Origin: an uncultured Oscillospiraceae bacterium
Lineage (GTDB): Bacteria > Bacillota > Clostridia > Oscillospirales > Oscillospiraceae
Reading direction: 5' to 3'
NCBI GenBank assembly: GCA_947629775.1
Contig: CANRFA010000010.1
Span: 1-60,322 of the forward strand
Length of the DNA: 60,322 bases
Part shown: piece by piece, positions 38,829 to 53,942 of the stretch
How the letters are laid out: each line of letters starts with the position of its first letter
Position numbering within the stretch: the first letter of the stretch is position 1
The notes under the pieces: model-generated
The model's input: only the letters and a program-made list of their open reading frames with translations
Databases searched by the model: none
What the model was told of the DNA's origin: nothing
Position numbers and translations under genes: made by a program

Positions 38829-39355
38829 GTAACTGGAACCGGATCGGAAAACCCATCGTGGTGCTGTGCGTCATCTGCATCGTCATCACCGGCGCTCTGG
38901 CCGCCACCAACTCCGTCACAGCTCCCATTATCGAGGCGGCTACCATCGCCGCTCAGGACGCGGCCCGGAAGGAACTGATCCCCGAGGCCGGCAGTTTCAC
39001 CAAGGTGGAAGGAATCACGGTGGATAAGGTCTCCGACGTCTACGAAGCGGATACCGGCGGATACGTCATCACCTCCACCGGCAAGGGCTATGGCGGCGAC
39101 GTCACCGTCATGACCGCCTTCGACGCGGACGGCAACATCATCAGCCTGAAGGTTACCGAGCAGGCCGAGACCAAGGGTATCGGCAGCAACGTGGCGGACA
39201 ACCCGGACTACTGGTCCAAATACAACGGCCTGTCCGGCGCGAAAGAACTGGTGCTCGGCACGGATGTGGACGCCTATTCCGGCGCCACCATCTCCAGCCG
39301 CGCTCTGAACTCCGCCGTCAACTCCGCCATTACCGCCTACAACGCGATTCCCTGA
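38825..39355 (+). CDS. rnfG: Rnf complex subunit RnfG
   Basis: A 176-residue subunit with one N-terminal helix and an extracytoplasmic FMN-binding domain. Covalent FMN attaches to the threonine of SGAT in DAYSGATISSRALNSAV near residue 155. Overlaps rnfD by 4 bases. Confidence 0.96.
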   Translation: MSNWNRIGKPIVVLCVICIVITGALAATNSVTAPIIEAATIAAQDAARKELIPEAGSFTKVEGITVDKVSDVYEADTGGYVITSTGKGYGGDVTVMTAFDADGNIISLKVTEQAETKGIGSNVADNPDYWSKYNGLSGAKELVLGTDVDAYSGATISSRALNSAVNSAITAYNAIP

Positions 39356-39372
39356 AAGGAGGGTGAGACAAG

Positions 39373-40056: not shown

Positions 40057-40646
40057 TCAAGCAGCTTGCCGTCATCTTCTTTACGATGATTCTGGTGGAC
40101 AACTATGTGTTGTCCAAGTTCCTGGGCATCTGCCCCTTCCTGGGCGTGTCCAAAAAGCTCGACAGCGCCGTCGGCATGTCTCTGGCTGTCGTATTCGTCA
40201 TGGTGATGGCGACCGCCGCCACCTGGCCCATTCAGACCTTCCTGCTGGATCCCAACGGAATGGGATACCTGCAGACCATCGTCTTCATTCTCATCATCGC
40301 CATTCTGGTGCAGCTGCTGGAGAACTTCCTGAAGAAGTTCATTCCCGCCCTGTACCGCTCCCTGGGTGTGTACCTGCCCCTGATTACCACCAACTGCACC
40401 ATCCTGGGCGTGACCATCCTCAACATCGACAACGAGTACAACTTCATTGAGAGCATCGTCTGCGCGGCCGGCGCCGGTCTCGGCTTCCTGGTAGCCATGG
40501 TGCTGTTCTCCGGTGTCCGCCGCAGAGTGGAGCAGGCCAGGCCCCCGGAGTGCTTCAAGGGACTGCCCATCACTCTGGTCGCCGCTGCCATGACCTCCCT
40601 GTCCTTCATGGGCTTCGGTGGCATCGTGGACGCCATCTTCGGCTGA
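40053..40646 (+). CDS. rnfA: Rnf complex subunit RnfA
   Basis: A 197-residue, six-helix membrane subunit forming the inverted pair of RnfE. The FLGICPFLGVSKK and LPLITTNCTILGV segments hold the Cys residues of the intramembrane cluster. 4-base overlap with rnfE. Confidence 0.97.
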   Translation: MIKQLAVIFFTMILVDNYVLSKFLGICPFLGVSKKLDSAVGMSLAVVFVMVMATAATWPIQTFLLDPNGMGYLQTIVFILIIAILVQLLENFLKKFIPALYRSLGVYLPLITTNCTILGVTILNIDNEYNFIESIVCAAGAGLGFLVAMVLFSGVRRRVEQARPPECFKGLPITLVAAAMTSLSFMGFGGIVDAIFG

Positions 40647-40665
40647 TAGGAGGGGAAAGAAGAGT

Positions 40666-41484
40666 ATGAATCCGATTCTCATGGCGATTATCCTGGTCAC
40701 CGCCATCGGCCTGATTGGCGCCGTGATCCTGGTAGCCGCGTCCATCTTCATGTATGTTCCCGTGGACGAGCGCGTGGAGCAGATCACCGCCGTCCTGCCC
40801 GGCGCCAACTGCGGCGCCTGCGGCTGCGCCGGCTGCGCCGACTACGCCAAGAACGTGGTGGAGAACGGCGCTCCCGTCAACAAGTGCGTGCCCGGCGGCG
40901 CCGCGGTGGCCGCCAAGGTCGCCGCCGTCATGGGCGTGGAAGCGGGCGCTTCCGTCCCCCAGAAGGCCGTGGTGGCCTGTTCCGGCACCTGCGGGAAGAC
41001 CTCCAAAAAGTACGAGTTTGAGGGAATTAAAACCTGTCAGTCTGTCAAGGGCCTCTACGGCGGCGATGGCGCGTGCACCTTCGGCTGCCTGGGCTACGGC
41101 GATTGCACCCGGGCCTGCCCCTTCGACGCCATCCATGTGGTGGACGGCGTGGCCAAGGTGGACCGGGAGAAGTGCGTCGGCTGCGGCGCCTGCGCGGCGG
41201 CCTGCCCGAACCACATCATCTCCATCATTCCCGAGCCGGTGAAGAACCCCAAGCGGCCCCGTCCCGTGGTCCTCTGCCAGAATAAGAACAAGGGCGCGGA
41301 CACCCGCAAGGCCTGCACCGCCGGCTGCATCGGCTGCATGAAGTGCGCCAAGGCCTGCAAGCTGGGCGCCATCACGGTCGAGAACTTCCTGGCCCATATC
41401 GACCAGGAGAAGTGCGTGGGCTGCTATCTGTGCGTCAAGGAGTGCCCCATGCAGGTTATCCACATTCCCGCCAACGAGGCGTAA
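40666..41484 (+). CDS. rnfB: Rnf complex subunit RnfB (ferredoxin-accepting)
   Basis: A 272-residue subunit that takes electrons from ferredoxin. An N-terminal helix (about 3-27) anchors it; the GANCGACGCAGC motif (about 45-56) is the 4Fe-4S-binding four-cysteine domain; then CVGCGACAAACP, CIGCMKCAKACK and CVGCYLCVKECP mark further 4Fe-4S sites. ATG 40666 follows GGAGGGGAAAG at a normal distance. Last gene of the operon. Confidence 0.97.
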   Translation: MNPILMAIILVTAIGLIGAVILVAASIFMYVPVDERVEQITAVLPGANCGACGCAGCADYAKNVVENGAPVNKCVPGGAAVAAKVAAVMGVEAGASVPQKAVVACSGTCGKTSKKYEFEGIKTCQSVKGLYGGDGACTFGCLGYGDCTRACPFDAIHVVDGVAKVDREKCVGCGACAAACPNHIISIIPEPVKNPKRPRPVVLCQNKNKGADTRKACTAGCIGCMKCAKACKLGAITVENFLAHIDQEKCVGCYLCVKECPMQVIHIPANEA

Positions 41485-41689: not shown

Positions 41690-42877
41690 ATGATCTATAT
41701 GGATAACGCGGCCACCACCCGCACCAGCCCGACGGCGATGCGGGTCATGATGGAGTGCATGGAGCAGTTCTGGGGGAATCCCTCCAGCCTCCACACTCCC
41801 GGCCAGAAGGCGGCGGAAGTGCTGGAGCAGGCCCGGGCGGACGTGGCCGCCGCTCTGCACGCTCAGCCCCGGGAGATCATCTTCACCGCCGGCGGCACCG
41901 AGGCGGATAACCAGGCCATCCAGAGCGCGGCCCGTCTGGGAAGAAAGAAGAGGAAGACCCATCTGATCTCCACCGCCATCGAACACCACGCGGTGCTCCA
42001 CACGCTGAAGCGCCTGGAGCAGGAGGGCTTTGAGGTCACCCTGCTTCCGGTCGGCGAACAGGGCATTGTCCGGGTGGAGGATGTGGCCGCCGCCATCCGG
42101 GAGGATACCGCCCTGGTGAGCGTCATGTTCGCCAACAACGAAATCGGCACCATTCAGCCCATCGCGGAAATCGGGAAGCTCTGCCGGGAGAAGAAGGTTC
42201 CCTTCCATGTGGACGCCGTACAGGCGGTGGGCCAGCTGCCCATCGACGTGAACGCCATGTGCATCGACATGCTCTCCCTGTCCGGGCACAAGTTCCACGG
42301 CCCCCGGGGATGCGGCGCCCTGTATGTGCGGCGGACCCTGCCCATTCAGCCCTACATCGAGGGGGGCGCCCAGGAGCGGGGCAAGCGGGCCGGGACCGAA
42401 AACCTGCCCGCCATCGCCGGCATGGCGGCGGCGCTGAAGGAGTCCTGCGCCAACATGGAAGCCAACAGCGCGAAGATGAGCGCAATGCGGGACCGGCTGA
42501 TCGACGGGATCGCGCAGATCCCTCACAGCGCGTTGAACGGCGCCCGGTCTCCCCGCCTGCCCGGGAACGTGAACTTCTGCTTCGAGGGAATCGAAGGGGA
42601 GTCGCTGCTGCTCCTGCTGGACGATAAGGAAATCGCGGCCTCCTCCGGTTCCGCGTGTACCTCCGGATCTCTGGATCCCAGCCACGTGCTGCTGGCCATC
42701 GGACGGCCTCACGAGGTGGCCCACGGTTCCCTGCGTCTGACGCTGGGGCCCGAGACCACCGAGGAGCAGGTGGATGAGACCATCCAGGCCGTAAAGGAAG
42801 TTGTGGAGTATCTGCGGGGCATGTCTCCCGTATGGAAGGAACTGCAGGAAGGAGTGCGCAGCTATGTTATACAGTGA
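41690..42877 (+). CDS. nifS: Cysteine desulfurase (IscS/NifS)
   Basis: A 395-residue PLP enzyme that takes sulfur from cysteine for Fe-S cluster assembly. The PLP lysine is in SLSGHKFHGPRGCGALY and the mobile catalytic Cys in SSGSACTSGSLDPSHVL. The N-terminus MIYMDNAATT is the family start. It overlaps nifU by 14 bases. Confidence 0.95.
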   Translation: MIYMDNAATTRTSPTAMRVMMECMEQFWGNPSSLHTPGQKAAEVLEQARADVAAALHAQPREIIFTAGGTEADNQAIQSAARLGRKKRKTHLISTAIEHHAVLHTLKRLEQEGFEVTLLPVGEQGIVRVEDVAAAIREDTALVSVMFANNEIGTIQPIAEIGKLCREKKVPFHVDAVQAVGQLPIDVNAMCIDMLSLSGHKFHGPRGCGALYVRRTLPIQPYIEGGAQERGKRAGTENLPAIAGMAAALKESCANMEANSAKMSAMRDRLIDGIAQIPHSALNGARSPRLPGNVNFCFEGIEGESLLLLLDDKEIAASSGSACTSGSLDPSHVLLAIGRPHEVAHGSLRLTLGPETTEEQVDETIQAVKEVVEYLRGMSPVWKELQEGVRSYVIQ

Positions 42878-43292
42878 GAAGGTCATGGACCATTTCCGGA
42901 ATCCCCGTAATGTGGGAGAGATCCCCGACGCGGACGGCGTGGGGCAGGTGGGCAACGCGAAGTGCGGAGACATCATGCGTATGACCCTGAAGATCGACGA
43001 CGGCATCATCTCCGACGTGAAATTCACCACCTTCGGGTGCGGGTCCGCCATCGCCACCAGTTCCATGGCTACCGAGCTCATCAAGGGCAAGCCCCTGAGC
43101 CAGGCGCTGGAACTGACCAACCAGGCGGTGGTGGAGGCCCTGGACGGACTGCCGGCCTACAAGCTCCACTGCTCCGTGCTGGCTGAGGAGGCGGTGAAGG
43201 CCGCCATCAAAGACTACTATGACCGCAACGGGATCGCCTATGATCCGGATCTCTTCCGGGACTGCGGCGACTGCGAGGGCTGCATGTCCTGA
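42864..43292 (+). CDS. nifU: Fe-S cluster scaffold protein (IscU/NifU N-type)
   Basis: A 142-residue scaffold. The three cluster cysteines are visible: Cys in GNAKCGD (about residue 33), in TFGCGSA (about 58) and in KLHCSVL (about 102). A further Cys-rich tail (Cys-Gly-Asp-Cys-Glu-Gly-Cys) ends the protein, common in Clostridial versions. With nifS it probably serves the Rnf complex and other anaerobic Fe-S enzymes. Confidence 0.95.
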   Translation: MLYSEKVMDHFRNPRNVGEIPDADGVGQVGNAKCGDIMRMTLKIDDGIISDVKFTTFGCGSAIATSSMATELIKGKPLSQALELTNQAVVEALDGLPAYKLHCSVLAEEAVKAAIKDYYDRNGIAYDPDLFRDCGDCEGCMS

Positions 43293-43797: not shown

Positions 43798-44724
43798 TTA
43801 CTTCGCCTGGGAGGCGATGAGGTCCCGGGAGCGGCCGGCGCGGAGGATGTAGCTCTCCATGCCGTGGTTGAGCAGGGTGCGCAGGCTGCGGGAGAGGGCG
43901 ATCAGCTTGACGATGTCGACGCCGGTCTCGATGCCGGACTCCTCACAGAGGTGCAGCACGTCCTCGGTGCAGACGTTGCCGGCGGCGCCGGGAACGAAGG
44001 GGCAGCCGCCCAGACCGCCGAAGGAACTGTCAAACCGGGTCATGCCGGCCTCCATGGCCGCCATGATGTTGGCGATGCCCAGGCCGCGGGTGTTATGGAA
44101 GTGGAGCCACCAGGTGTTCTCGGGGTACTTCTCCCGGACGTGGGAGCAGATCTCGTTGACCTGGCTGGGGACGGCCATGCCGGAGGCGTCGGAGAGGGAG
44201 ATCTCCGTGATGCCCACGTTCATATAGGCCTCGATGATGGAGTCCACCTGCTCCTGGGGGATCCGCCCCTCCCAGGGGGAACCGAAGGGCATGGAGATGG
44301 AGCCGGAGATGACGATGTTGTTGTCATGAGCCATCTTCACGCAGTCGGCGAAGCCGGCGACGCTCTGCTCGGGGGTCATGTTCAGGTTCTTGAGGTTGTG
44401 CATCCGGCTGGCGGAGACGTTGAGCTTGACCTTGCGGCAGCCGCACTCCACGGCCCGCTTCACACCCCGCAGGTTGGGAATCAGAGCGCGCAGCTCCACG
44501 CCGGGAACGTCACCCAGCTCTTTGAACAGCTGGTCCGTGTCCGCCATCTGGGGAACGCGCTTGGGGTGCATGAAGGAGCCTACCTCAATAACAGAGAAGC
44601 CGGCGTCGATGAGGCCGCGCAGCAGTTCCAGCTTCTGCTCCGTGGTGAGCAGAGTGTCCTCGTTCTGCAGGCCGTCCCGAAGACCGACCTCGCAGAGGGT
44701 GATGGAAGAGGGCAGTTTCAGCAT
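43798..44724 (-). CDS. HMG-CoA-lyase-like DRE-TIM metallolyase
   Basis: A 308-residue TIM-barrel lyase of the HMG-CoA lyase branch. The metal/substrate motif EVGLRDGLQNE is at residues 12-22, the metal His pair is in HFHNTRG, and the catalytic cysteine loop is GLGGCPFVPGAAGNVCTED. HMG-CoA lyase itself splits HMG-CoA to acetoacetate and acetyl-CoA; relatives act on other 3-hydroxy-3-methylacyl thioesters or act as aldolases. The usual HxHD is here HxHN. ATG 44724 follows AGGAGGTAAC. It is divergent from the island genes and probably belongs to the same pathway. Confidence 0.82.
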   Translation of the reverse strand: MLKLPSSITLCEVGLRDGLQNEDTLLTTEQKLELLRGLIDAGFSVIEVGSFMHPKRVPQMADTDQLFKELGDVPGVELRALIPNLRGVKRAVECGCRKVKLNVSASRMHNLKNLNMTPEQSVAGFADCVKMAHDNNIVISGSISMPFGSPWEGRIPQEQVDSIIEAYMNVGITEISLSDASGMAVPSQVNEICSHVREKYPENTWWLHFHNTRGLGIANIMAAMEAGMTRFDSSFGGLGGCPFVPGAAGNVCTEDVLHLCEESGIETGVDIVKLIALSRSLRTLLNHGMESYILRAGRSRDLIASQAK

Positions 44725-45020
44725 GATAATGTTACCTCCTGAAATAGGATGTCGGGGACATGGAGAGGACTCCATCCATTCTGACGCTATCATAGTACAG
44801 AAACGGGGCGCCGCGCAAATACAATTTTTCAATGGAGTCATAGAAAAAACTGATGCGAATCCGCTACAGCGGCCATCTTTGGAGGGGCGGTTGTTTCTGG
44901 AAATTCCGCGTTCGGCTCTCTGCACAAAATCAGGGGGCTGGATTTGTGCAACCTGCCAAAAACTCTGACGATTCATATAAGATTCCCATAAAATTCAGAT
45001 GAATCGATGAAGAACATATA
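44725..45020. other. Divergent intergenic control region of the island
   Basis: About 400 bases separate the two divergent transcription units. The region is AT-rich and contains an 8-bp perfect inverted repeat (44969-44976 with 44999-45006). A target for the LysR regulator encoded at 50959 is plausible. Confidence 0.5.
44969..45006. promoter_or_regulatory. Inverted repeat CGATTCAT-N22-ATGAATCG
   Basis: Perfect 8-bp arms 22 bases apart, just upstream of the -35 at 45021. Suitable as an operator for a dimeric or tetrameric regulator. Confidence 0.45.
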
Positions 45021-45050
45021 TTGGAATGCTTGTCAGGTTTTCAATATAAT
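45021..45050 (+). promoter_or_regulatory. sigmaA promoter of the island's plus-strand genes
   Basis: TTGGAA (45021-45026), 18 bases, TATAAT (45045-45050). Confidence 0.65.
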
Positions 45051-45120
45051 AGGCTGTGGAATGCAAGTGAGGTTGGCTATTCTGCCAATAAACCATCGAA
45101 CAGACAAGGAGAGAGGGTAT

Positions 45121-45963
45121 ATGGCAAAAAAGTTTTCTCTGGCATATCTTACAATTCCCGGAACGCCGCCGGTGGAGCAGATCCGGATTGCCAAGGAGTG
45201 CGGGTACGACTTCGTCAGTCTTCGTACCATCCCGATGCATCTCCCCGGCGAGCCGGAATTCCTGCTCCATGTGGACTCGGAGCTCTTTTTGTCCGTAAAA
45301 CGGGCCCTGGAAGAGTACGATATGAAGCTGATGGATATCGAGCTGGCCCGGATCCGTCCCGACCTGGACATCAACGAGTATGAGCCCGCGTTTGAGAAGG
45401 CGGCCGAGCTGGGCGCCACGGACGTTCTGGGCAGCGTGTGGACCCGCAATGTCTCCTACTACACCGAGCAGGTCGGCCGGGTGGCGGAGATGGCGAAGGA
45501 CTACGGCCTGTGCTATAACGTGGAGTTCCTTCCCTGGGCCGGCGTCCGCAACCTGCAGGAGGACATCACGCTGGTGGACGCGGTCGGCGCGGATAACCTG
45601 TTTGTCATGGTGGATACTCTCCATGCCGGACGGGCGGGCGTGACCGCCCAGGAACTGTCCCGCACGGACCCGAAGTACTTCCGCTTCATCCACCTCTGCG
45701 ACGGCCCCGGCGGATCCGACGGCGACCCCGTGCTCTGCGACATCCGGGATGAAAAGATGCTGCATACCGCCCGGGAAGCCCGGCTGTATCCCGGCTACGG
45801 CGTCATGGACATCGCGGGCATGGTAAAGGCCATGCCGGCCAACCTTCCTCTCTCCATCGAACTTCCCAACCTGACCCAGATCCGCCTGCGGGGCGCCAAG
45901 GGCCATGCGCAGCGCTGCATCGACATGGCCAGGCGGTACTTCGCGGACCACGGAATTGAGTAA
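45121..45963 (+). CDS. Sugar-phosphate isomerase/epimerase-like TIM-barrel protein
   Basis: A 280-residue AP-endonuclease-2/xylose-isomerase-like barrel. Metal ligands can be read from NVEFLPWAG (Glu), VDTLHAGRAG (Asp and His), IHLCDGPG (His) and LSIELPN (Glu). Members of this family include inosose dehydratase IolE, hydroxypyruvate isomerase and 3-dehydroshikimate dehydratase. Which reaction is done here cannot be told from sequence, but the following AroE-like gene makes a cyclitol or dehydroshikimate-type dehydratase an attractive idea. GAGAGAGGG precedes the ATG. Confidence 0.8.
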   Translation: MAKKFSLAYLTIPGTPPVEQIRIAKECGYDFVSLRTIPMHLPGEPEFLLHVDSELFLSVKRALEEYDMKLMDIELARIRPDLDINEYEPAFEKAAELGATDVLGSVWTRNVSYYTEQVGRVAEMAKDYGLCYNVEFLPWAGVRNLQEDITLVDAVGADNLFVMVDTLHAGRAGVTAQELSRTDPKYFRFIHLCDGPGGSDGDPVLCDIRDEKMLHTAREARLYPGYGVMDIAGMVKAMPANLPLSIELPNLTQIRLRGAKGHAQRCIDMARRYFADHGIE

Positions 45964-46015
45964 GTCCCCTGTTCCCGTCAGAGCCACCATTCTTTATGAA
46001 ATGAGGTAACACAGT

Positions 46016-46873
46016 ATGAAGGTCGACATCAACACCAAAATGATCACCCTGCTGGGCACCCCCCTGAGCCAGTCCTTTGCCGCCCGTATGCAGAACGCCG
46101 GTTACGAGTCCGCCGGGATCAACATGATCTATTTCTACACCGAGACGGACAACGAGCACTTGGGCGATATCGTCAATGGCCTGCGTTACATGAACTTTGC
46201 CGGCTTTGCCGTCACCAAGCCCAACAAGGTAGCTGTCCTGCAGTATCTGGACGAGCTGGATCCCCTCTGCGAGAAGATGGGCTCCAGCAACACCGTGGTG
46301 AAGAAGGACGGCAAGCTGATCGGCTACAATACGGACGGCGTGGGCTTCTATACCTCTCTGGTGGAAGAGGGCGGCGTGAAGGTGGACGAATCCGTCTTCT
46401 TCTGCTTCGGCGCCGGCGGCGCGGGCCGGGCCATGTGCTCCATCCTGGCCTATCACGGCGCCAAGAAGATCTACATCACCGATTTCTTTGAGTCCAGCGC
46501 TCAGTCCCTGGTGGCGGACATCAACGAGAAGTTCGCTCCGGTCGCCGAATTCGTGCCCAAGGATGACTTCTCCAAGCTGGCTGCCTGCGACGTGGTGCTG
46601 AACGCCAGCGGCGTCGGTATGGGCAAGAGCATCGGCAAGACTCCGATGCCCATCGAGTATGTCCAGTCCACCCAGTTGTACTTCGACGCCTGCTACAATC
46701 CCGACAAGACCCAGTTCCTGCTCAACGCCGAGGCCAAGGGCGCGAAGATCCTGAATGGCCTGGGCATGTCCCTCTACCAGGGCGCCGCGCAGGTGGAGCT
46801 CTGGACCGGCAAGAAGCCTCCGGTCGAGGCCATGCGCAAGGAACTGCTGACCATTCTGGCTGAGTCGAAGTAA
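46016..46873 (+). CDS. Shikimate/quinate dehydrogenase-like oxidoreductase (AroE superfamily)
   Basis: A 285-residue AroE-fold enzyme. Catalytic Lys is in VTKPNK, the catalytic Asp in IGYNTDGVGF and the dinucleotide loop in FGAGGAGRA. Two features point away from biosynthetic AroE. The usual Asn of the NVT motif is Ala (FAVTKP), and the second of the two substrate-binding Ser residues near the N-terminus is Ala (LSQSFA where HSKS is usual). After the second strand the sequence reads ITDFFES, with Asp where NADP-enzymes have Arg/Thr, indicating NAD+. A catabolic dehydrogenase acting on a shikimate-like hydroxy-acid is inferred. Confidence 0.85.
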   Translation: MKVDINTKMITLLGTPLSQSFAARMQNAGYESAGINMIYFYTETDNEHLGDIVNGLRYMNFAGFAVTKPNKVAVLQYLDELDPLCEKMGSSNTVVKKDGKLIGYNTDGVGFYTSLVEEGGVKVDESVFFCFGAGGAGRAMCSILAYHGAKKIYITDFFESSAQSLVADINEKFAPVAEFVPKDDFSKLAACDVVLNASGVGMGKSIGKTPMPIEYVQSTQLYFDACYNPDKTQFLLNAEAKGAKILNGLGMSLYQGAAQVELWTGKKPPVEAMRKELLTILAESK

Positions 46874-46918
46874 GACTCTTCCAACTCCCCCTTCGTATAC
46901 ATGCTTCCGTCCCGATGA

Positions 46919-46947
46919 TTGGGGCATCGGGGCGGAAGTGGTATAAT
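46919..46947 (+). promoter_or_regulatory. sigmaA promoter of the TRAP genes
   Basis: TTGGGG (46919-46924), 17 bases, TATAAT (46942-46947), within an imperfect CCGATG/CATCGG hairpin (46912-46930) that may also act as attenuator. Confidence 0.6.
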
Positions 46948-46978
46948 TCCCGGCAATCAAAGAAAGAGGAGGTATATA

Positions 46979-47542
46979 ATGAAAGCAATCAAGTGGCTGG
47001 ATGAGCATCTGGAAGAGGCGATCCTGATCGTCGGCCTGGTGCTCATCTCCGTGGTCTGCCTGGTGCAGGTCCTGTTCAACAAGCTTCCGTTCCTGACGAG
47101 CCTGACCTGGTCAGAGGAATTCTGCCGCTTCGTATGGATCTGGTGCGTGTTCATCTCCGTTCCTTACACGATCAAGAAGGGCAGCATGCTGCGCGTCAGC
47201 GTCGTTCTGGACCTGTTACCGCAGGGCCTGCGTAAGGTGATCAACCTGGTGGTTCAGATCATCGTGCTGCTCAGCATGATTCTGATGGCCTACTATTCCT
47301 TCGAGGTGGTCGGCTTCATCAAGGCGAGCGGGGAGCTGTCTGCGGCTCTTCGTCTGCAGATCTGGCTGATCTACGCATCCATCAGCGTTGGTTTCGTCCT
47401 CGGTGTCATCCGGGCCGCCCAGCAGGTCGTTCATGTTGTGAAGCATTTCAACGAGAAGGAACTGACCACTCTGGAGCAGACCATGGCCGATGCCGCCGCT
47501 GAGGCGGAAGCCAGCAAGAGAGCGGAAGGAGGGGCCAAGTAA
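46979..47542 (+). CDS. dctQ: TRAP transporter small membrane subunit (DctQ)
   Basis: A 187-residue four-helix membrane protein with the DctQ hallmarks LTWSEEFCRFVWIWCVF and KGSMLRVSVV. It joins DctM to form the membrane part of a Na+-coupled TRAP importer for carboxylates or related small acids. The start is the ATG at 46979, preceded by AGGAGGTATATA. It abuts dctM with no gap. Confidence 0.93.
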   Translation: MKAIKWLDEHLEEAILIVGLVLISVVCLVQVLFNKLPFLTSLTWSEEFCRFVWIWCVFISVPYTIKKGSMLRVSVVLDLLPQGLRKVINLVVQIIVLLSMILMAYYSFEVVGFIKASGELSAALRLQIWLIYASISVGFVLGVIRAAQQVVHVVKHFNEKELTTLEQTMADAAAEAEASKRAEGGAK

Positions 47543-48829
47543 ATGGCAGCTGTACTGGTATTTGCGGTATTCCTGATCGGAATCGTTGTCTCCATCCCCA
47601 TCGGCGTCAGCATGATCCTGGGCTCCGTAGCGCCCATCTTCCTGATGAACGCCGGCGGCGCGGTGGGACAGATCCTCGACAACACCTTCGGCGGAGCCAA
47701 CTCCACTCCCATCCTGGCGGTGCCTCTGTTCATCCTGGGCGGCGTCATCATGGCGGAAGGCGGCATCTCCCGCAAGCTGTTCAACTTCTTCGCCTACTTC
47801 GTAGGCCGTCTTCCCGGCGGCGTGCCCTGCGCGGTCATCCTGACCTGCCTGTTCTACGGTGCCATTTCCGGATCCGGCCCGGCCACGACCGCCGCTGTCG
47901 GCTCCATGTGTATCCCCTTCATGGTGAGCCTTGGCTATGACCGCCAGTGGAGCGCCGGCCTGGTGGCCGTCTCCGGCGGCCTGGGCGTCATCATCCCGCC
48001 GTCCATCCCCTTTGTTCTGTACTCCCTGGCCACCGGCGTTTCCACCGGTAACCTCTTCAAGGGCGGCATCATCCCCGGCATCCTCATCGGCGTCTTCCTG
48101 ATGATCTACGCGGTCTTCTACTGCGTGACCAAGGGCGAGGATAAGCAGAAGATCAAAACCAAGATGGATGAACTGAGCAGCAAGGGCTTCGGCGCCCTGT
48201 TCCTGGACAGCCTCTGGGCCCTCCTGTGCCCCATCATCATCCTGGGTGGCATCTACTCCGGCCTCTTCACCCCCACTGAGGCGGCCTGCATCTCTGTCTT
48301 CTATGCCCTCATAGTAGCGCTGTTTATTTACAAAACCATCACCTTTAAGGACATCATCCCCCTGCTGGCGTCCTCCGTCAAGACCTACGGCGGCCTGGCC
48401 TTCGTGCTGGCCTTCGCTACCGCCTTCGGTCGCGTGCTGTCCCTGACCCGCGCCACCACCTTCGTGGTTGACTTCGTCAGCAACAGCTTCCACACCTCCT
48501 GGACCGTGCTCACCGCCATGGTCATCATCTTCCTCATCCTGGGCATGGTCATGGATACCGGCCCGGCCATCATCATTCTGGCTCCCGTGCTGCTGCCCGC
48601 CGTGCAGAACCTGGGCGTCAACGACGTACACTTCGGCGTAGTGCTGGTATGCTGCCTGTCCATCGGCCTGGCGACCCCGCCCTTCGGCCTGGACCTGTTC
48701 GTGGCCGGCAACCTGTCGAAAGATCCGCCCATGTCCGTAGCGAAAAAGGCGGTACCTTTCATTATTGCCTTCCTGATTGCCCTGCTCCTGATTACTTATG
48801 TCCCGTGGTTCAGCACGGCTCTCATCTGA
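47543..48829 (+). CDS. dctM: TRAP transporter large membrane subunit (DctM)
   Basis: A 428-residue polytopic protein (12 or so helices) of the ion-transporter superfamily. The GAISGSGPATTAAVGSM segment, the IIPPSIPFVLYS segment and the VMDTGPAIIILAPVLLP segment are diagnostic. Its ATG follows directly on the dctQ stop. Confidence 0.95.
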   Translation: MAAVLVFAVFLIGIVVSIPIGVSMILGSVAPIFLMNAGGAVGQILDNTFGGANSTPILAVPLFILGGVIMAEGGISRKLFNFFAYFVGRLPGGVPCAVILTCLFYGAISGSGPATTAAVGSMCIPFMVSLGYDRQWSAGLVAVSGGLGVIIPPSIPFVLYSLATGVSTGNLFKGGIIPGILIGVFLMIYAVFYCVTKGEDKQKIKTKMDELSSKGFGALFLDSLWALLCPIIILGGIYSGLFTPTEAACISVFYALIVALFIYKTITFKDIIPLLASSVKTYGGLAFVLAFATAFGRVLSLTRATTFVVDFVSNSFHTSWTVLTAMVIIFLILGMVMDTGPAIIILAPVLLPAVQNLGVNDVHFGVVLVCCLSIGLATPPFGLDLFVAGNLSKDPPMSVAKKAVPFIIAFLIALLLITYVPWFSTALI

Positions 48830-48851
48830 TGGAAAGGAGGAAGACACAACG

Positions 48852-49889
48852 ATGAAAAAACTTGCAGCTCTGCTCCTGGCCGGCGCCATGGCTCTGTCCC
48901 TGGCTGGCTGTGCCGGTGGCGCAAACAGCGATAAGCTTGTCATGGTTGGCGTGGACAGCGCCGGACGTGGCGCTGCGGCCCAACTGTTCGGCGAACTGAC
49001 AGCCGAGAAGGTCGCCGAGACCAGCGGCGGTAATATTGTCCTGGACTATCACCCCAACGGCGACCTGGGCGATGACGCCACCCTGCTGCGTCAGACCTCC
49101 GCCGGCTGGCTGAATCTGGTGGTCTGCCAGACCGCTCCCGTGGTCAGCCTCATTCCTGAGATGGCCGTGTTCGACCTGCCCATGGTCTTCGCCAAGTACG
49201 ACGGCGACACCATCGACCAGGTTCTGAACAGCCCCGACTCCGAGTTCTTCCAGCAGATGTCCGCCGCCTATGAGAAGGCCGGCTTCCACCTGCTTGGTTT
49301 CCTGCAGAACGCCACTTACCGTCTGACCACCTCCAACAAGGCAGTCAACACGCTGGCGGACTTCAAGGGTCTGATCATCCGGACCATGGAGAACAGCAAC
49401 CACGTGAAGTTCTGGCAGGCCATCGACGCCCAGCCCAGTCCTCTGGCCTGGTCCGAGACCTACTTCGCCCTCCAGACCGGCGCCCGTGACGCCGAAGAGA
49501 ACGCCGCTGATACCATCGTAGGCGCCAACCTCCAGGAAGTGCAGAAGTATCTGGCCTGCACGAACCACATCCTGTATGTCAACCAGATGGCGGTCAGCAA
49601 GAAGACCTGGGACTCCATGACTCCCGAGCAGCAGGAGGCCCTCAACGAGGCCGTCGCCCAGGCTCTGGAGGAACTGCGTCCTCAGCTGCTGCAGATCGAC
49701 CAGGAGAACAAGGATAAGCTGATCAACGATCCAAACTATCCGATGACCCTGGTGGAGTACGACAACAGCTTCTTTGACGAGGTCCTTGCGGATCCCGAGG
49801 TCGTCGCCCTTTATAAGGACATCGACGCCCAGACCAACGGCCTCGGTACCATCCTTCAGGAATCCCTGGAGGCCGCTGCCGCCGGCTGA
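48852..49889 (+). CDS. dctP: TRAP transporter substrate-binding lipoprotein (DctP)
   Basis: A 345-residue periplasmic-type binding protein made a lipoprotein by the lipobox LSLAGCAGG (Cys21). The mature domain has the DctP pattern, including the conserved FKGLIIRTM segment whose Arg normally binds the substrate carboxylate. The ligand is thus an organic acid. Ribosome-binding site GGAAAGGAGG. Confidence 0.93.
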   Translation: MKKLAALLLAGAMALSLAGCAGGANSDKLVMVGVDSAGRGAAAQLFGELTAEKVAETSGGNIVLDYHPNGDLGDDATLLRQTSAGWLNLVVCQTAPVVSLIPEMAVFDLPMVFAKYDGDTIDQVLNSPDSEFFQQMSAAYEKAGFHLLGFLQNATYRLTTSNKAVNTLADFKGLIIRTMENSNHVKFWQAIDAQPSPLAWSETYFALQTGARDAEENAADTIVGANLQEVQKYLACTNHILYVNQMAVSKKTWDSMTPEQQEALNEAVAQALEELRPQLLQIDQENKDKLINDPNYPMTLVEYDNSFFDEVLADPEVVALYKDIDAQTNGLGTILQESLEAAAAG

Positions 49890-49904
49890 TTTCCGCAATC
49901 CGGT

Positions 49905-49939
49905 CCGGGGCCGCCAGACAGCGGTCTGAGCGGCCCCGG
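49905..49939 (+). terminator. Terminator of the TRAP operon
   Basis: 10-bp stem CCGGGGCCGC (49905-49914) with GCGGCCCCGG (49930-49939), T/C-rich tail. Confidence 0.7.
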
Positions 49940-49989
49940 TTCTCTCCGCATCCCGGATTCCTCCTGGAGTCCGAAAGGAGTTTCCTTCC

Positions 49990-50889
49990 ATGAAACCCGC
50001 ATCCGGCGGGAAGGCCTATGGCCTCCTGTTCCTGACTTTCTTCATCTGGGGCAGCGTATACGTGGGCGGCAAGCTGATCTCCGATCAGGTTCCCCCGGCC
50101 CTTCTGGCCTGTCTGCGCTGTACCCTGGGACTGATTCCACTGTCGATGATGGCCTCGAAGTATCGGGGCAAGGTGCATATCGCCCGGGAGGACTGGAAAT
50201 GGTTCTTCCTGGTAGGAGTCACTGGCTACTTCATGACCATCACCCTCATTCAGTTGGGCATTTCTCTGACCGGCGCCGCCATGGCGGCTCTGATCAACGC
50301 CCTGACCCCTGTCTCCGTTACCATCATGGCGGCCATTTTTCTCCGGGAGCGGATTACTCCCGTGAAGCTGGTCTGCCTGGTCCTCGCTCTGGCCGGAACC
50401 GTGATCATCACGGGCGGAGCCGGAAGCCAGGGGGAGATGGCGGGTATTCTGGTGGTCGGGGTGGCGGTCTTTACCTGGGGCATCGCCTCTGTGTTCATGC
50501 GCCGGCTGACCGCCCGCTATCCCGCCGTTCTGGTGACCGCCATCGGCACAGCCTTCAGTCTGCTCTTCCATATCCCGCTGGGGGTGTATACGGTTGCCAC
50601 GCAGCCGGTTGATCTGAATCCCCTCAGCATCTGTGTCGTGCTGTACCTGGCCTGGGTCGGGTCCGGGGTCGCCCAGTATTCCTGGACCCGGGCGCTGTCC
50701 CTTCTGCCGGCCAGCACATGTTCCCTCTTTTATCCCCTGCAGCCGATGTTTTCCGCTTTGCTGGGCGCTCTGATTCTGAAGGAGACGTTCGGTACCTCGT
50801 TTTTTGCCGGTCTGCTTCTGATTTCGCTGGACGTGGTGCTCAATACCTGGGAGACCCGCCGGCTGGCTCGAAACGAAAGACAGGCATAG
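49990..50889 (+). CDS. EamA/DMT-family permease
   Basis: A 299-residue, ten-helix protein with two EamA halves (about 10-140 and 155-290), ending in a basic loop. DMT permeases export or import metabolites such as amino acids and sugars. GAAAGGAG is 9 bases before the ATG. Between the TRAP terminator and the LysR gene, so it may be an efflux or overflow route of the same pathway; the substrate is unknown. Confidence 0.85.
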   Translation: MKPASGGKAYGLLFLTFFIWGSVYVGGKLISDQVPPALLACLRCTLGLIPLSMMASKYRGKVHIAREDWKWFFLVGVTGYFMTITLIQLGISLTGAAMAALINALTPVSVTIMAAIFLRERITPVKLVCLVLALAGTVIITGGAGSQGEMAGILVVGVAVFTWGIASVFMRRLTARYPAVLVTAIGTAFSLLFHIPLGVYTVATQPVDLNPLSICVVLYLAWVGSGVAQYSWTRALSLLPASTCSLFYPLQPMFSALLGALILKETFGTSFFAGLLLISLDVVLNTWETRRLARNERQA

Positions 50890-50958
50890 ATGCCGGCATT
50901 GGCTGAAGGGGCCGATCCCGGCGCACATTCTTCGGAGAAAAGCGAGGTCTGCCTTATC

Positions 50959-51909
50959 ATGAATCTTCGACAGCTGCAGTATTTCAAGGCCATCGCAGAG
51001 CTGGAGCACTATACCCGGGCGGCGGAAACGCTGTTCGTCAGTCAGTCCAGCCTCAGCCATGCGATTCAGGAGCTGGAGGGAGAACTGAAGGCGAAGCTGT
51101 TTGTCCGGGAAGGCCGGAACATCAAGCTGACCAAGTACGGAAAGCTGTTCCTGCCTTACGTGCAGCGGTGCCTGGAGACTCTGGATACCGGCGTCGCCAA
51201 GCTGTCGGATTACATCAACCCAAACACCGGTACCGTGGTCATGGCAGGTTTCCCTTCCCTGGCCTACTTTGCCCCTTATATTATTGTCCGTTACGTCTCC
51301 GACACGAACCGGGTGGATGTCCACCTGCAGTTCAACCAGGAAGCCACCTATACAAAGCTGAAGGAACAGGTCCTCAGCGGTCAGGTGGATCTGGTCTTTG
51401 CCACGGAGATTGACGACCCCCGCGTGGGCTGTACCTACATCGGGCAGCATCCGCTGGTGGTCCTCGCTTCCGTGAATCACCGGTTTGCCCGGCAGGAGCG
51501 GGTGGATCTGCGGGAACTGGACGGCGAGAACTTCATCGCCTTCGACCGCAACTGCCAGCTCCGGGCTCAGACAGACCGGGCGTTCCAGGAGCTTGGGGTT
51601 CATCCCAACATCACCACCGAAACTGCTCAGGATCTGATCATTTACGGCCTGGTGGCCGCCAATCACGGCGTGGCCATCACGCCCTATCCGCTGGGAGGGG
51701 CGCCCTACAATGTGAAGATCATTCCCATTGCGAATCCCATCGCCACCCGGAAGCTGTATCTGCTCTGGAACAAGGAGCAGTATATTCCGCCCGCGGCGGA
51801 ATATTTCCGGGACTTTGTGGTGCGAAGCGGACCCGTTTTCCACGACTACCTGCGTCAGAGCCAGGATCTGCGGAAAATCAGTTCCTTTGCCCGCATTCTG
51901 GACGCCTGA
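50959..51909 (+). CDS. LysR-family transcriptional regulator
   Basis: A 316-residue regulator with an N-terminal winged helix-turn-helix (MNLRQLQYFKAIAELEHYTRAAETLFVSQ... begins at 1, helix-turn-helix about 18-40) and a periplasmic-binding-like effector domain. ATG 50959 is the family start; the longer reading from 50890 adds 23 residues unlike LysR. It sits between transporter and ThDP-enzyme genes and is likely the island's regulator. Confidence 0.9.
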   Translation: MNLRQLQYFKAIAELEHYTRAAETLFVSQSSLSHAIQELEGELKAKLFVREGRNIKLTKYGKLFLPYVQRCLETLDTGVAKLSDYINPNTGTVVMAGFPSLAYFAPYIIVRYVSDTNRVDVHLQFNQEATYTKLKEQVLSGQVDLVFATEIDDPRVGCTYIGQHPLVVLASVNHRFARQERVDLRELDGENFIAFDRNCQLRAQTDRAFQELGVHPNITTETAQDLIIYGLVAANHGVAITPYPLGGAPYNVKIIPIANPIATRKLYLLWNKEQYIPPAAEYFRDFVVRSGPVFHDYLRQSQDLRKISSFARILDA

Positions 51910-51951
51910 GCGCTTCCCGCTCCCGTACAGACGCATCCCTTTGTTTGTCCC

Positions 51952-51981
51952 CTGACCTTCACGGAAGGTCTTACCCATACT
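51952..51981 (+). promoter_or_regulatory. Weak promoter and small inverted repeat before the ThDP gene
   Basis: ACCTTC/GAAGGT inverted repeat (about 51955-51969) overlaps a CTGACC-18-CATACT promoter-like pair. An operator overlapping a -35 would suit repression or LysR activation. Confidence 0.35.
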
Positions 51982-52011
51982 TTACACATTTCAATCAGGA
52001 GGTTATGTCCC

Positions 52012-53850
52012 ATGAGCAAGAAACTGGTCTCCGATCTGATGGTTGATTACCTGGAGCGCCGCGGCGTCAAGTACGTCTTCGGTCTCTGCGGCCACACTGT
52101 CATCGGAATGCTGGATGGTATGTCCCGCAGCTCCAAGCTCACCTACATCTCCAACCGCCATGAGGCTGTTGCGTCCACCGCCGCTGACGGCTATGCCCGT
52201 ATCACCCACAAGGCCTCCGTGGTCATGTGCCACCTCGGCCCCGGCCTGACCAACGTTCTCACCGGTGTTGCGAATGCTGCGTTCGACTCCATCCCCATGG
52301 TCGTCATTGCCGGCGACGTGCCCAGCTACTACTATGGCCGTCATCCTCATCAGGAAGTGAACATGCACGGCGACGCCACCCAGTACAAGATTCTGGAGCC
52401 CGTTGTGAAGCGCGCATGGCGGATTGACGACATTGAGGCTCTGCCCTCCATCATGGACAAGGCTTTCCGTCTCGCGGAATCCGGCCGTCCCGGCCCCGTC
52501 CTGATCGACATGCCCATGGATATGTTCTCCCGCGAGATGGAGGATTACCTGTGGGATCGCACCTACAAGGACAGCCCCGTCACCATGAAGCCCGCCCTGG
52601 ATCCCGCCGCCGCCAAGGCCATTGCCAAGCGGCTGGTTGAGGCCAAGGCCCCCGTGCTGCACGCCGGCGGCGGCATCCTGCTGGCGCAGGCCACCGACGA
52701 GCTGGCTGCTCTCGCCGAGTTCCTGGACATCCCCGTGTCCCGTACCCTGATGGGTCAGGGCTGCCTGCCCGACAACCATCCTCTGCTGGTTGGCCAGACC
52801 GGTTTCTGGGGCCTGGAGTTCACCCACTCCCTGACGAAGAACGCCGATGTCATCCTGGGCCTGGGCACCCGCTTCGCCGAGGCCGACAGCTCCAGCTGGT
52901 ATCAGGGCGTTACCTTCGATCCCGATAAGACCGCCTTCCTGCAGATCGACATCGATCCCATGGAGATCGGCCGCAACTATCCCGTCGAGATCGGCGCCAT
53001 CGCAGACCTGAAGGTCGGCCTGGCCCAGATTCTCGAGGAAGTGAAGAAGATCTGCCCCGAGGGCAAGAGCAATCCCGAGCTGCGCGCTCAGATCGCCAAG
53101 GCGAAGGCCGACTTCAAGGCTTCCAACGTGGCCATCTCCACCGACAGCCGCTTCCCCATGACCCCGCAGCGCATCCTCCACGACCTGAAGGAGGCCCTCC
53201 CCGAGGACGCCATCATCTTCACCGACGTGGGCTGGAACAAGAACGGCATGGCGCAGCAGTATGACATCAACATCCCCGGCACCATCCATCACTCCTCCGG
53301 TCTCGCCACCATGGGCTTCGGCGCTTCCGCCGTCCTGGGCGGCAAGGTCGCTGCTCCCGACAAGATCTGCCTGGCCCTCGTGGGCGACGGCGGCTTCGGC
53401 GTGAACCCCACCTGCCTGGCCACCGCGGTGGAGCAGGGCATCGCCTGCACCTGGGTTGTCATGAACAACTCCGCCTTCGGCACCATCGCCGGCCTGGAGA
53501 ACGCCAACTACAACACCCAGTTCGGCACCCTGTTCCACACCCCCGACGGCGAGCGCTACAGCCCCAGCTGGGCCGGCGTCGCCAGGGCTTACGGCGTGGA
53601 CTCCATCTGCTGCCAGTCCGCTGAGGACTTCCTGCCCGCCATGCAGAAGGCCATCGAGGCCAATAAGGCCGGCAAGCCCTTCCTGGTCGAGGCCCCCATG
53701 GAGAACATCGCCGTTCCCACGCCCGGCTGCTGGAACATCAACGACATCTACAGGCCGCACGATCTGGTCAAGGAAGGCAAGCTCGTGAAGCGGGACGAGA
53801 ACGGCAACTGGATCGCCCCCAGCCACAGCAAGTCCCACAAGACCCACTGA
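52012..53850 (+). CDS. Thiamine-diphosphate-dependent enzyme (acetolactate-synthase/IolD-like)
   Basis: A 612-residue three-domain ThDP enzyme. The cofactor-activating Glu is in SNRHEAVASTAADGYAR (about residue 49), and the ThDP/Mg2+ motif is VGDGGFGVNPTCLATAVEQ with the Asn-Asn at VVMNN. The opening FGLCGHT and HPHQEVNMHGDATQY differ from true acetolactate synthase. Known relatives include ring-opening cyclohexane-1,2-dione hydrolase, IolD and acetolactate synthase; substrate here is unknown. It has a strong ribosome-binding site (CAGGAGG) and codon use biased to few codons, indicating high expression. Confidence 0.82.
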   Translation: MSKKLVSDLMVDYLERRGVKYVFGLCGHTVIGMLDGMSRSSKLTYISNRHEAVASTAADGYARITHKASVVMCHLGPGLTNVLTGVANAAFDSIPMVVIAGDVPSYYYGRHPHQEVNMHGDATQYKILEPVVKRAWRIDDIEALPSIMDKAFRLAESGRPGPVLIDMPMDMFSREMEDYLWDRTYKDSPVTMKPALDPAAAKAIAKRLVEAKAPVLHAGGGILLAQATDELAALAEFLDIPVSRTLMGQGCLPDNHPLLVGQTGFWGLEFTHSLTKNADVILGLGTRFAEADSSSWYQGVTFDPDKTAFLQIDIDPMEIGRNYPVEIGAIADLKVGLAQILEEVKKICPEGKSNPELRAQIAKAKADFKASNVAISTDSRFPMTPQRILHDLKEALPEDAIIFTDVGWNKNGMAQQYDINIPGTIHHSSGLATMGFGASAVLGGKVAAPDKICLALVGDGGFGVNPTCLATAVEQGIACTWVVMNNSAFGTIAGLENANYNTQFGTLFHTPDGERYSPSWAGVARAYGVDSICCQSAEDFLPAMQKAIEANKAGKPFLVEAPMENIAVPTPGCWNINDIYRPHDLVKEGKLVKRDENGNWIAPSHSKSHKTH

Positions 53851-53903
53851 GTTCCCTCTCCCCTCTGAAGAGAATCCAACCTGATCGAAAGGATAGAACA
53901 TTA

Positions 53904-53942
53904 TCCGGCAGGAACCGCTTCGGCGGTTTCTGCCGGATTTTT
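53904..53942 (+). terminator. Terminator of the ThDP gene
   Basis: 15-bp interrupted stem (53904-53918 with about 53922-53937) followed by TTTTT. Confidence 0.85.

What the first reader, a model, noticed from the sequence alone, without database searches (positions are those of the whole stretch)
43798..53850. Candidate undescribed catabolic island for a cyclic or branched hydroxy-acid
A TRAP importer for organic acids, an NAD-type AroE-like dehydrogenase, an IolE/dehydroshikimate-dehydratase-type barrel, a ThDP enzyme related to ring-opening or acyloin enzymes, an HMG-CoA-lyase-like enzyme, a permease and a LysR regulator occur together. By analogy with inositol breakdown (dehydrogenase, dehydratase, ThDP hydrolase, aldolase), one route would be oxidation, dehydration, ring opening and lyase cleavage of quinate, shikimate or a similar acid without protocatechuate. 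I know no described pathway with this gene set.
Basis: inference. Interest (0 to 1): 0.8.

Follow-up and report, generated by a model that had tools for sequence, protein, structure and literature searches.

The report
Predicted non-aromatic anaerobic quinate breakdown operon
This gene cluster, found in many anaerobic bacteria including gut species, probably takes up the plant acid quinate (or shikimate), opens its ring without making an aromatic compound and splits it into two central metabolites, a route for which I found no published description.

Summary
They form a conserved unit: relatives of the ThDP enzyme sit beside the TIM-barrel protein, an AroE-like dehydrogenase, an HMG-CoA-lyase-like enzyme, a TRAP or Tct importer and a CoA-acylating aldehyde dehydrogenase in Clostridia, Acidaminococcus, Synergistota and a spirochaete. 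At least three of the four partner enzymes are present at 45 of 80 loci; none of 20 acetolactate-synthase control neighbourhoods has the TIM barrel, AroE-like gene or aldehyde dehydrogenase. At ten relatives' loci a true type I 3-dehydroquinate dehydratase lies in or near the cluster, tying it to quinate/shikimate chemistry. Best reading: quinate -> 3-dehydroquinate -> 1-hydroxy-3,4-dioxocyclohexane-1-carboxylate -> ring opening to a homocitrate semialdehyde -> homocitryl-CoA -> acetyl-CoA + 2-oxoglutarate, the last cleavage reversing homocitrate-synthase chemistry. In the window's genome the aldehyde dehydrogenase lies on another contig, and no 3-dehydroquinate dehydratase was found, so quinate is likelier than shikimate here. 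No enzyme was assayed. Three genomes with the other cluster genes lack the TIM barrel, which the model does not explain.

The parts
43798..44724 (-). HMG-CoA-lyase-like enzyme; proposed homocitryl-CoA lyase (acetyl-CoA + 2-oxoglutarate)
   Evidence: Pfam HMGL-like; NCBIfam HMG-CoA lyase subfamily 307.9 bits over cut-off 246; catalytic residues kept. Substrate inferred.
45121..45963 (+). Xylose-isomerase-like TIM barrel; proposed 3-dehydroquinate C4/C5 dehydratase giving a ring 1,2-dione
   Evidence: Pfam AP_endonuc_2, no NCBIfam family; E135, D165, H191, E247 invariant in 48 of 48; remote PDB relatives IolI, Lmo2234, 5hmq, AsbF.
46016..46873 (+). AroE-like dehydrogenase; proposed NAD-dependent quinate dehydrogenase
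   Evidence: Pfam Shikimate_dh_N and SDH_C; pocket residues kept except second Ser of SxS to Ala; second AroE of the genome only 28% identical.
46979..47542 (+). TRAP transporter small permease DctQ
   Evidence: Pfam DctQ
47543..48829 (+). TRAP transporter large permease DctM
   Evidence: Pfam DctM; NCBIfam dctM 368.5 bits over cut-off 268.45
48852..49889 (+). TRAP solute-binding protein DctP
   Evidence: Pfam DctP; NCBIfam TRAP_S1 over cut-off; closest solved chains are TRAP binding proteins, many for sialic acid; ligand unknown
49990..50889 (+). EamA-family permease, accessory
   Evidence: Pfam EamA; found at 16 of 80 loci
50959..51909 (+). LysR-type regulator, proposed regulator of the cluster
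   Evidence: Pfam HTH_1 and LysR_substrate
52012..53850 (+). ThDP enzyme; proposed ring-opening hydrolase of the cyclic dione
   Evidence: Pfam TPP_enzyme N, M, C; Gly-His-Thr 27-29 as in cyclohexane-1,2-dione hydrolase
53903..53938 (+). Terminator-like hairpin after the ThDP gene
   Evidence: 16 pairs plus T-rich tail; a pattern match only
44725..45120 (.). Intergenic space between the divergent HMGL and TIM genes, likely control region
   Evidence: Promoter-like patterns at 44965-44994, 44994-45022 and 45021-45050 (6 found in the region against 2.9 expected)

Best explanation
The cluster encodes an anaerobic, non-aromatic route for quinate (and, where a 3-dehydroquinate dehydratase accompanies it and runs backwards, shikimate). 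(1) The TRAP system imports the acid. (2) The AroE-like enzyme oxidises quinate to 3-dehydroquinate. (3) The TIM barrel removes the C4 proton and C5 hydroxyl, as 3-dehydroshikimate dehydratases do; because C1 keeps its hydroxyl the product cannot aromatise at once and becomes 1-hydroxy-3,4-dioxocyclohexane-1-carboxylate. (4) The ThDP enzyme hydrolyses the C3-C4 bond, as cyclohexane-1,2-dione hydrolase does, giving a homocitrate semialdehyde with the aldehyde on the short arm. (5) A CoA-acylating aldehyde dehydrogenase, adjacent in many relatives and on another contig here, makes homocitryl-CoA. (6) The HMGL-like enzyme cleaves it to acetyl-CoA and 2-oxoglutarate, the reverse of homocitrate-synthase chemistry. 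Here 2-oxoglutarate could go on through a 2-hydroxyglutarate-type operon. Shown: gene families and co-conservation. Inferred: every reaction step. From the recalled descriptor of 3-dehydroquinate (1R,4S,5R) the product centre would have the (R) label of natural homocitrate.
For: Co-conservation: at least three of ALDH, TIM, AroE-like and HMGL at 45 of 80 loci, all four at 30 of 80; 0 of 20 acetolactate-synthase control loci have ALDH, TIM, AroE, AroD, TRAP or Tct hits. Hydroaromatic link: 10 of 10 AroD proteins tested from cluster loci pass the type I 3-dehydroquinate dehydratase cut-off, four of them next to the ThDP gene or one gene away (L027, L028, L083, L073); a type II enzyme over cut-off in L110. 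AroE-like pocket: K65, N86, T101, D102, Y215 equivalents in 46 of 46 rows. Second Ser to Ala in the window class, comparable to Ser338Gly of plant quinate dehydrogenases (PMC7752791, passages; residue mapping recalled). TIM: remote relatives IolI, 5hmq and AsbF (the last two recalled as 3-dehydroshikimate dehydratases). ThDP: G27-H28-T29 in 9 of 9 cluster enzymes and in CDH; CDH H28 and N484 matter for its activity profile (PMC12247030, passages). ALDH belongs to the CoA-acylating group. G167 has a citryl-CoA lyase over cut-off in the cluster and no HMGL orthologue. Aconitase and isocitrate dehydrogenase beside L013 and L014, citrate lyase beside L013 (by inspection). No 3-dehydroquinate dehydratase of either type in the window's genome, which favours quinate over shikimate there.
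Against: No activity shown. G259, G437 and G364 carry ThDP and (at least two of) AroE, ALDH, HMGL but no TIM barrel anywhere at E <= 0.001, so step 3 is unexplained there. The aldehyde dehydrogenase is not in the window. The HMGL-like protein passes the ordinary HMG-CoA lyase cut-off and may simply be one. G529, listed 99% complete, also lacks an HMGL orthologue (best 29%), though its cluster contig is cut upstream. The citryl-CoA lyase swap was seen once (L027) and in 0 of the 80 loci; recalled stereochemistry (such lyases use (S)-citryl-CoA) argues for caution. 16 of 80 loci have only ALDH, 7 of 80 none of the four; two of these seven, L040 and L094, have about 10 kb on each side. Nine loci have TIM, ALDH and HMGL but no AroE-like gene in the stretch held. 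AroE-like copies of L027, L028, L029, L083, L104, L109, L110 and L111 fall outside the window's AroE group and may be ordinary shikimate dehydrogenases. The Asp taken as NAD sign is in 22 of 46 rows only. In L046, L075 and L103 the AroD could be biosynthetic. CDH's second histidine is one column off. The 2-hydroxyglutarate-type dehydratase relative is in only 10 of 22 cluster genomes tested.
Confidence: 0.58

Rival explanations
1. Quinate/shikimate is the substrate and the same genes act, but the middle chemistry differs: the TIM barrel is a ketol isomerase like IolI, and the ThDP enzyme cleaves an acyloin instead of a dione, so the products are not homocitryl-CoA and 2-oxoglutarate.
For: The best profile match of the TIM barrel in the PDB is IolI, E 9.4e-19 (recalled as an inosose isomerase). 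Some clusters have no TIM barrel in the genome at all.
Against: It leaves the acylating ALDH and HMGL-like lyase without an obvious substrate, and gives no role to aconitase and isocitrate dehydrogenase beside L013 and L014.
Confidence: 0.2
2. The substrate is not a hydroaromatic acid but another cyclic or branched hydroxy-acid or a sulfonate-like compound; the AroE-like enzyme has drifted to it.
For: The second serine of the SxS carboxylate motif is Ala in 27 of 46 rows; ALDH scores best against acylating sulfoacetaldehyde dehydrogenase, below cut-off; a Gfo/Idh/MocA dehydrogenase is present in nine loci, in L045 and L102 without an AroE-like gene; the DctP is closest to sialic-acid binders.
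Against: AroD at ten loci; the rest of the pocket kept; ThDP far below the sulfoacetaldehyde acetyltransferase cut-off (268.8 against 676.4).
Confidence: 0.14
3. The TIM barrel is a 3-dehydroshikimate dehydratase and the cluster feeds protocatechuate, as in the classical aerobic pathway.
For: Remote similarity to AsbF and 5hmq.
Against: It gives no role to the ThDP enzyme, ALDH and HMGL-like lyase that travel with it; no protocatechuate ring-cleavage gene stood out among the recurrent neighbours (by inspection); the window's genome has no 3-dehydroquinate dehydratase.
Confidence: 0.05
4. The genes are neighbours without a common function.
For: Partial gene sets at many loci (16 of 80 with ALDH only, 7 of 80 with none of the four).
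Against: Complete sets in different orders under titles of three phyla and 0 of 20 control neighbourhoods.
Confidence: 0.03

Closest known systems
Classical hydroaromatic pathway (quinate/shikimate to protocatechuate)
   Same: Quinate/shikimate dehydrogenase first; a TIM-barrel enzyme related to 3-dehydroshikimate dehydratases
   Different: No aromatic intermediate proposed; ThDP ring opening, acyl-CoA and lyase steps instead
myo-Inositol catabolism (iol: dehydrogenase, IolE dehydratase, IolD ThDP hydrolase; recalled)
   Same: Logic of ring oxidation, dehydration to a dione and ThDP hydrolysis; TIM barrel remotely related to IolI
   Different: AroE-type instead of IolG-type dehydrogenase in most clusters; carboxylated ring; CoA-acylating step and HMGL-like lyase
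Cyclohexane-1,2-dione hydrolase (Azoarcus)
   Same: ThDP family, shared Gly-His-Thr at 27-29, proposed dione ring cleavage
   Different: Low similarity (2pgn E 3.8e-43, behind acetolactate synthases); other histidine one column off; substrate differs
HMG-CoA lyase
   Same: Family, over NCBIfam cut-off, catalytic residues kept
   Different: Proposed substrate homocitryl-CoA
Homocitrate synthase
   Same: Same C-C bond and intermediate in the proposal, reverse direction
   Different: Far below the homocitrate synthase cut-offs (76-78 against 413-463 bits)
Ilyobacter insuetus quinate/shikimate fermentation
   Same: Same substrates, anaerobic; cited in that sense in PMC10512730 (passages)
   Different: Genes unknown to me; its genome could not be examined; Brune et al. 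2002 not read, seen only as a citation

Membership tests
Quinate/shikimate dehydrogenase (AroE fold) | Shikimate-dehydrogenase N- and C-terminal domains | tested here: met
   Pfam over cut-off
Quinate/shikimate dehydrogenase (AroE fold) | Catalytic Lys/Asp and substrate-pocket residues | tested here: met
   Lys and Asp in 46 of 46 rows; second Ser of SxS replaced by Ala in the window class, 27 of 46
Quinate/shikimate dehydrogenase (AroE fold) | Score over a curated equivalog cut-off | tested here: not met
   Best 203.1 against 252; quinate/shikimate dehydrogenase model 148.6 against 349
Quinate/shikimate dehydrogenase (AroE fold) | Oxidises quinate | not testable with these tools
   Needs an assay
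HMG-CoA lyase family | NCBIfam subfamily cut-off | tested here: met
   307.9 against 246
HMG-CoA lyase family | Catalytic Arg, Asp, two His, Cys (labels recalled) | tested here: met
   41 to 43 of 43 aligned cluster copies, the rest gaps; alignment to the human enzyme
Cyclohexane-1,2-dione hydrolase | Active-site His28 | tested here: met
   Aligned His in 9 of 9 cluster enzymes and with CDH
Cyclohexane-1,2-dione hydrolase | His76 | tested here: inconclusive
   Invariant His74 lies one column from it
Cyclohexane-1,2-dione hydrolase | Close sequence relation to CDH | tested here: not met
   Many acetolactate synthases and glyoxylate carboligases score higher
3-dehydroshikimate dehydratase / IolE-type TIM barrel | Metal-binding E-D-H-E site | tested here: met
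   48 of 48
3-dehydroshikimate dehydratase / IolE-type TIM barrel | Membership in a curated dehydratase family | tested here: not met
   No NCBIfam family at E <= 0.001; only remote PDB similarity
CoA-acylating aldehyde dehydrogenase | Closest curated families are CoA-acylating | tested here: met
   Top three families for each of 3 proteins; all below equivalog cut-offs
Classical hydroaromatic pathway | Protocatechuate ring-cleavage genes | not tested
   Not searched in the genome; only the recurrent neighbours were inspected
Type I 3-dehydroquinate dehydratase in related clusters | TIGR01093 cut-off 139.3 | tested here: met
   10 of 10 proteins, 194.5-245.4 bits; absent from the window's own genome

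The most novel reading that the evidence does not exclude
Anaerobes of at least three phyla, including gut bacteria, degrade quinate and shikimate by a non-aromatic route that turns 3-dehydroquinate into (R)-homocitryl-CoA and then acetyl-CoA and 2-oxoglutarate. The end of the route runs homocitrate-synthase chemistry backwards and joins shikimate-type and lysine-type chemistry through one ThDP ring-opening step.
Probability: 0.5. Interest if true: 0.85.

Novelty: new variant of a known kind. Interest (0 to 1): 0.76.

Why it matters
Quinate and its esters (chlorogenic acids) are abundant in plant food, yet how strict anaerobes use the quinate ring is, to my knowledge, open. One marine lineage is cited as fermenting only quinic and shikimic acids (PMC10512730, passages), and no gene-level route turned up in my searches of the held library. 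If right, the cluster gives a marker for this trait, several new enzyme functions, and a link from dietary quinate to 2-oxoglutarate and possibly butyrate in gut bacteria. It makes the question directly testable with six proteins.

Tried and rejected
Gene calling with codon scores from the window failed for genomes of other base composition and was replaced by one seeded with homology. ThDP relatives at 41-43% identity (L031, L032) have other gene sets and were left out of the system. BbmA, the closest solved ThDP chain, could not be interpreted: the search found no paper about it. A sulfoacetaldehyde reading was considered and set aside. Structure prediction was asked for nine times, eight for the TIM barrel and one for the ThDP enzyme, and each time the machine was busy, so no fold search was run. 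The genome of Ilyobacter insuetus could not be reached; the one named-genome scan kept only the best 80 of 556 relatives.

How counts were made: HMGL and aconitase hits under 40% identity and AroE hits under 33% were dropped; TRAP counts any DctP/Q/M hit at E <= 1e-8, also weak ones. In one search, 47 of 54 TIM hits (255 aa or more) plus the window were aligned; the prediction alignment A2 holds 40. In one search AroE-like proteins over 240 aa were used. Control: of 42 of 61 genomes with an acetolactate-synthase match I took 20, one place each, down the score list, leaving out G192 (at a contig start); stretches were 11.8-20 kb, against up to 21.9 kb for the 80 loci. Some of the 80 loci share a genome (L041/L042, L092/L094, L034/L058, L043/L050, L087/L096), so loci are not independent genomes.
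Full report
WHAT IS THERE. The region holds nine genes: an HMG-CoA-lyase-like gene on the minus strand and, diverging from it, a xylose-isomerase-like TIM barrel, an AroE-like dehydrogenase, DctQ, DctM, DctP, an EamA permease, a LysR regulator and a ThDP enzyme, then a terminator-like hairpin. The window is one whole contig of a 3.07-Mb assembly in 204 contigs, 95% complete.

IT IS A CONSERVED UNIT. In the window's family 5 of 150 genomes, own included, carry the TIM barrel at E <= 1e-20. The other four hold cluster genes around it in other orders; in G058 (L013) there is no ThDP gene in the 19.7 kb held. In 398 genomes of the phylum, 8 (own included) have a ThDP relative at E <= 1e-140; those at 55-71% identity lie beside partner genes, the two at 42-43% have other gene sets. 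Titles include [Clostridium] symbiosum, two Acidaminococcus, [Clostridium] aminophilum, Oscillibacter valericigenes, Lutispora, Acetoanaerobium, Anaerovirgula, 18 Synergistota and one spirochaete.

COUNTS AND CONTROL. Of the 80 loci, 65 have the aldehyde dehydrogenase (ALDH), 53 the TIM barrel, 43 the HMGL-like gene, 40 an AroE-like gene and 42 TRAP genes; 45 have at least three of the four enzymes, 30 all four, 16 only the ALDH (14 of these are Synergistota by title) and 7 none of the four. Of those 7, L040 and L094 have about 10 kb on each side; the rest are cut by contig ends. Among 30 loci with at least 7 kb on both sides the numbers are 26, 24, 21, 21 and 20. In 20 acetolactate-synthase neighbourhoods, same BLAST threshold, none had an ALDH, TIM, AroE, AroD, TRAP or Tct hit; HMGL, aconitase and ICD references hit at 21-27% identity only, presumably leucine-pathway enzymes.

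THE MISSING MEMBER. For three ALDHs tested, the best three NCBIfam families are CoA-acylating (sulfoacetaldehyde, AdhE, EutE-type), all below cut-off. The window's genome has one match, 87% identical to that of L034 over residues 137-478 and cut by the end of contig C42. It would turn the aldehyde made by the ThDP enzyme into a thioester, which an HMGL-like lyase needs.

THE LINK TO QUINATE AND SHIKIMATE. Ten of ten AroD-like proteins from cluster loci (7 of the 80 loci, plus L027, L028, L029) pass the cut-off for type I 3-dehydroquinate dehydratase. In L027, L028 and L083 the gene is next to the ThDP gene, in L073 one gene away, in L029 two genes away, in L103 it heads a run AroD-TIM-HMGL-ALDH-ThDP-AroE. 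In L046 it is 5.6 kb off on the other strand, and in L075 and L103 a shikimate-kinase-like gene is next to it, so it could be biosynthetic there. L110 has a type II enzyme over cut-off. The window's genome has neither type, so its own shikimate pathway looks incomplete and backward use of AroD is not available to it; this points to quinate. The AroE-like protein keeps the known pocket except that the second serine of the SxS motif is alanine (SQSFAARMQN), as in 27 of 46 aligned rows; an Asp that may favour NAD is in 22 of 46. In plant enzymes Thr381Gly gives, and Ser338Gly improves, quinate activity, and a DID motif goes with NAD (PMC7752791, passages); that Ser338 is the second serine is recalled, and the residue recalled as Thr381 is still threonine here. 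AroD or AroQ accompanies 2 of 26 loci with the Ala-type AroE (L046, L075) but 8 of 16 with the Ser-type (L075 counted in both; counts), which would fit quinate-specific and shikimate-using versions. The genome's second AroE is 28% identical. In a FastTree of 46 sequences the window-class and related copies fall in a group of 34 (support 0.944) without it, but AroE-like copies of eight cluster loci also fall outside.

THE CHEMISTRY. The TIM barrel's remote solved relatives are IolI, Lmo2234, 5hmq and AsbF, and several sugar epimerases; 5hmq and AsbF are recalled as 3-dehydroshikimate dehydratases. Its E-D-H-E metal site is invariant in 48 of 48. Applied to 3-dehydroquinate, the dehydratase reaction gives a ring 1,2-dione because C1 keeps its hydroxyl. 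The ThDP enzymes carry Gly-His-Thr at 27-29 where cyclohexane-1,2-dione hydrolase does, while the two acetolactate synthases of the same genome have GAT and GGA. H28 and N484 are the residues changed in a CDH variant with new activity (PMC12247030, passages). Hydrolysis of the C3-C4 bond with the aldehyde at C3, acylation and lyase cleavage give acetyl-CoA and 2-oxoglutarate. The HMGL-like proteins keep the catalytic residues of HMG-CoA lyase and score over that family's cut-off, so an ordinary HMG-CoA lyase is not excluded.

FATE OF 2-OXOGLUTARATE. L013 and L014 have aconitase- and isocitrate-dehydrogenase-like genes beside the cluster, L013 also citrate-lyase-like genes (named by inspection); among the 80 loci only one has the aconitase, L051, the same place as L014. 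The window's genome has two adjacent 2-hydroxyacyl-CoA-dehydratase subunits over the Pfam cut-off with an activase, a decarboxylase-like set and CoA-transferase-like genes; only the activase and the sodium-pump subunit pass an NCBIfam cut-off and the CoA-transferase-like genes matched nothing there, so the name 2-hydroxyglutarate operon is inference. A relative of the beta subunit is in 10 of 22 cluster genomes tested. This fits the proposal but is not specific for it.

REPLACEMENTS AND GAPS. G167 has TIM, ThDP, AroD, AroE, ALDH and a citryl-CoA lyase over cut-off in one run, and no HMGL orthologue (best hit 25%, partial). None of the 80 loci shows this swap. G529 also lacks an HMGL orthologue, with its cluster cut by a contig end. 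A Gfo/Idh/MocA dehydrogenase is in nine loci, in L045 and L102 without an AroE-like gene. G259, G437 and G364 lack the TIM barrel at E <= 0.001; in G437 and G364 a cupin gene lies beside the ThDP gene and in no other locus searched. This gap is unexplained.

LITERATURE. In the listings I saw no gene-level description of anaerobic non-aromatic quinate breakdown, nor of homocitryl-CoA in quinate metabolism. Most subscription papers are not held, and one listed paper with the words quinic acid fermentation (PMC12249245) was not read, so this is weak evidence of novelty.

VERDICT. A real, widespread cluster. Hydroaromatic acids as substrate: likely, about 0.8.

Noticed in passing
window 36574-41484: Six genes that look like an Rnf complex operon, upstream of the cluster (named by inspection, no family search).
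   Followed up: no
window 41690-43292: NifS-like and NifU-like genes between the Rnf-like genes and the cluster (named by inspection).
   Followed up: no
L029 9348-9728 and L030 3203-3517: A small cupin gene beside the ThDP gene only in two related genomes that lack the TIM barrel; possible stand-in for the dehydratase step. No NCBIfam match.
   Followed up: partly
L045, L053, L072, L074, L076, L079, L082, L102, L111: A conserved Gfo/Idh/MocA dehydrogenase of about 390 aa in the cluster, perhaps for another stereoisomer or substrate.
   Followed up: partly
L036, L037, L038, L039, L041, L042, L059, L060, L087: A MoxR-like ATPase and a partner of about 400 aa recur as a pair at these nine loci, after the ALDH where the gene order was seen (L036, L041); role unknown.
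   Followed up: no
L039, L040, L049, L050, L058, L096: Two split transketolase-like genes and a 224-aa racemase-like gene recur near ThDP relatives, perhaps a second system.
   Followed up: no
14 Synergistota loci, e.g. L047, L056, L064, L101: ThDP enzyme of about 80% identity paired with the ALDH only, without the other partners in the stretch held.
   Followed up: no
L075 3726-4544: A protein with a chorismate-mutase-like N-terminus and a shikimate-kinase-like C-terminus, both below cut-off, next to AroD.
   Followed up: no
L033-L109, 7 loci with a PEP-mutase/isocitrate-lyase-family gene: A PEP-mutase-family lyase beside the cluster at 7 of 80 loci, below the curated cut-offs of its relatives; perhaps another downstream cleavage.
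   Followed up: no
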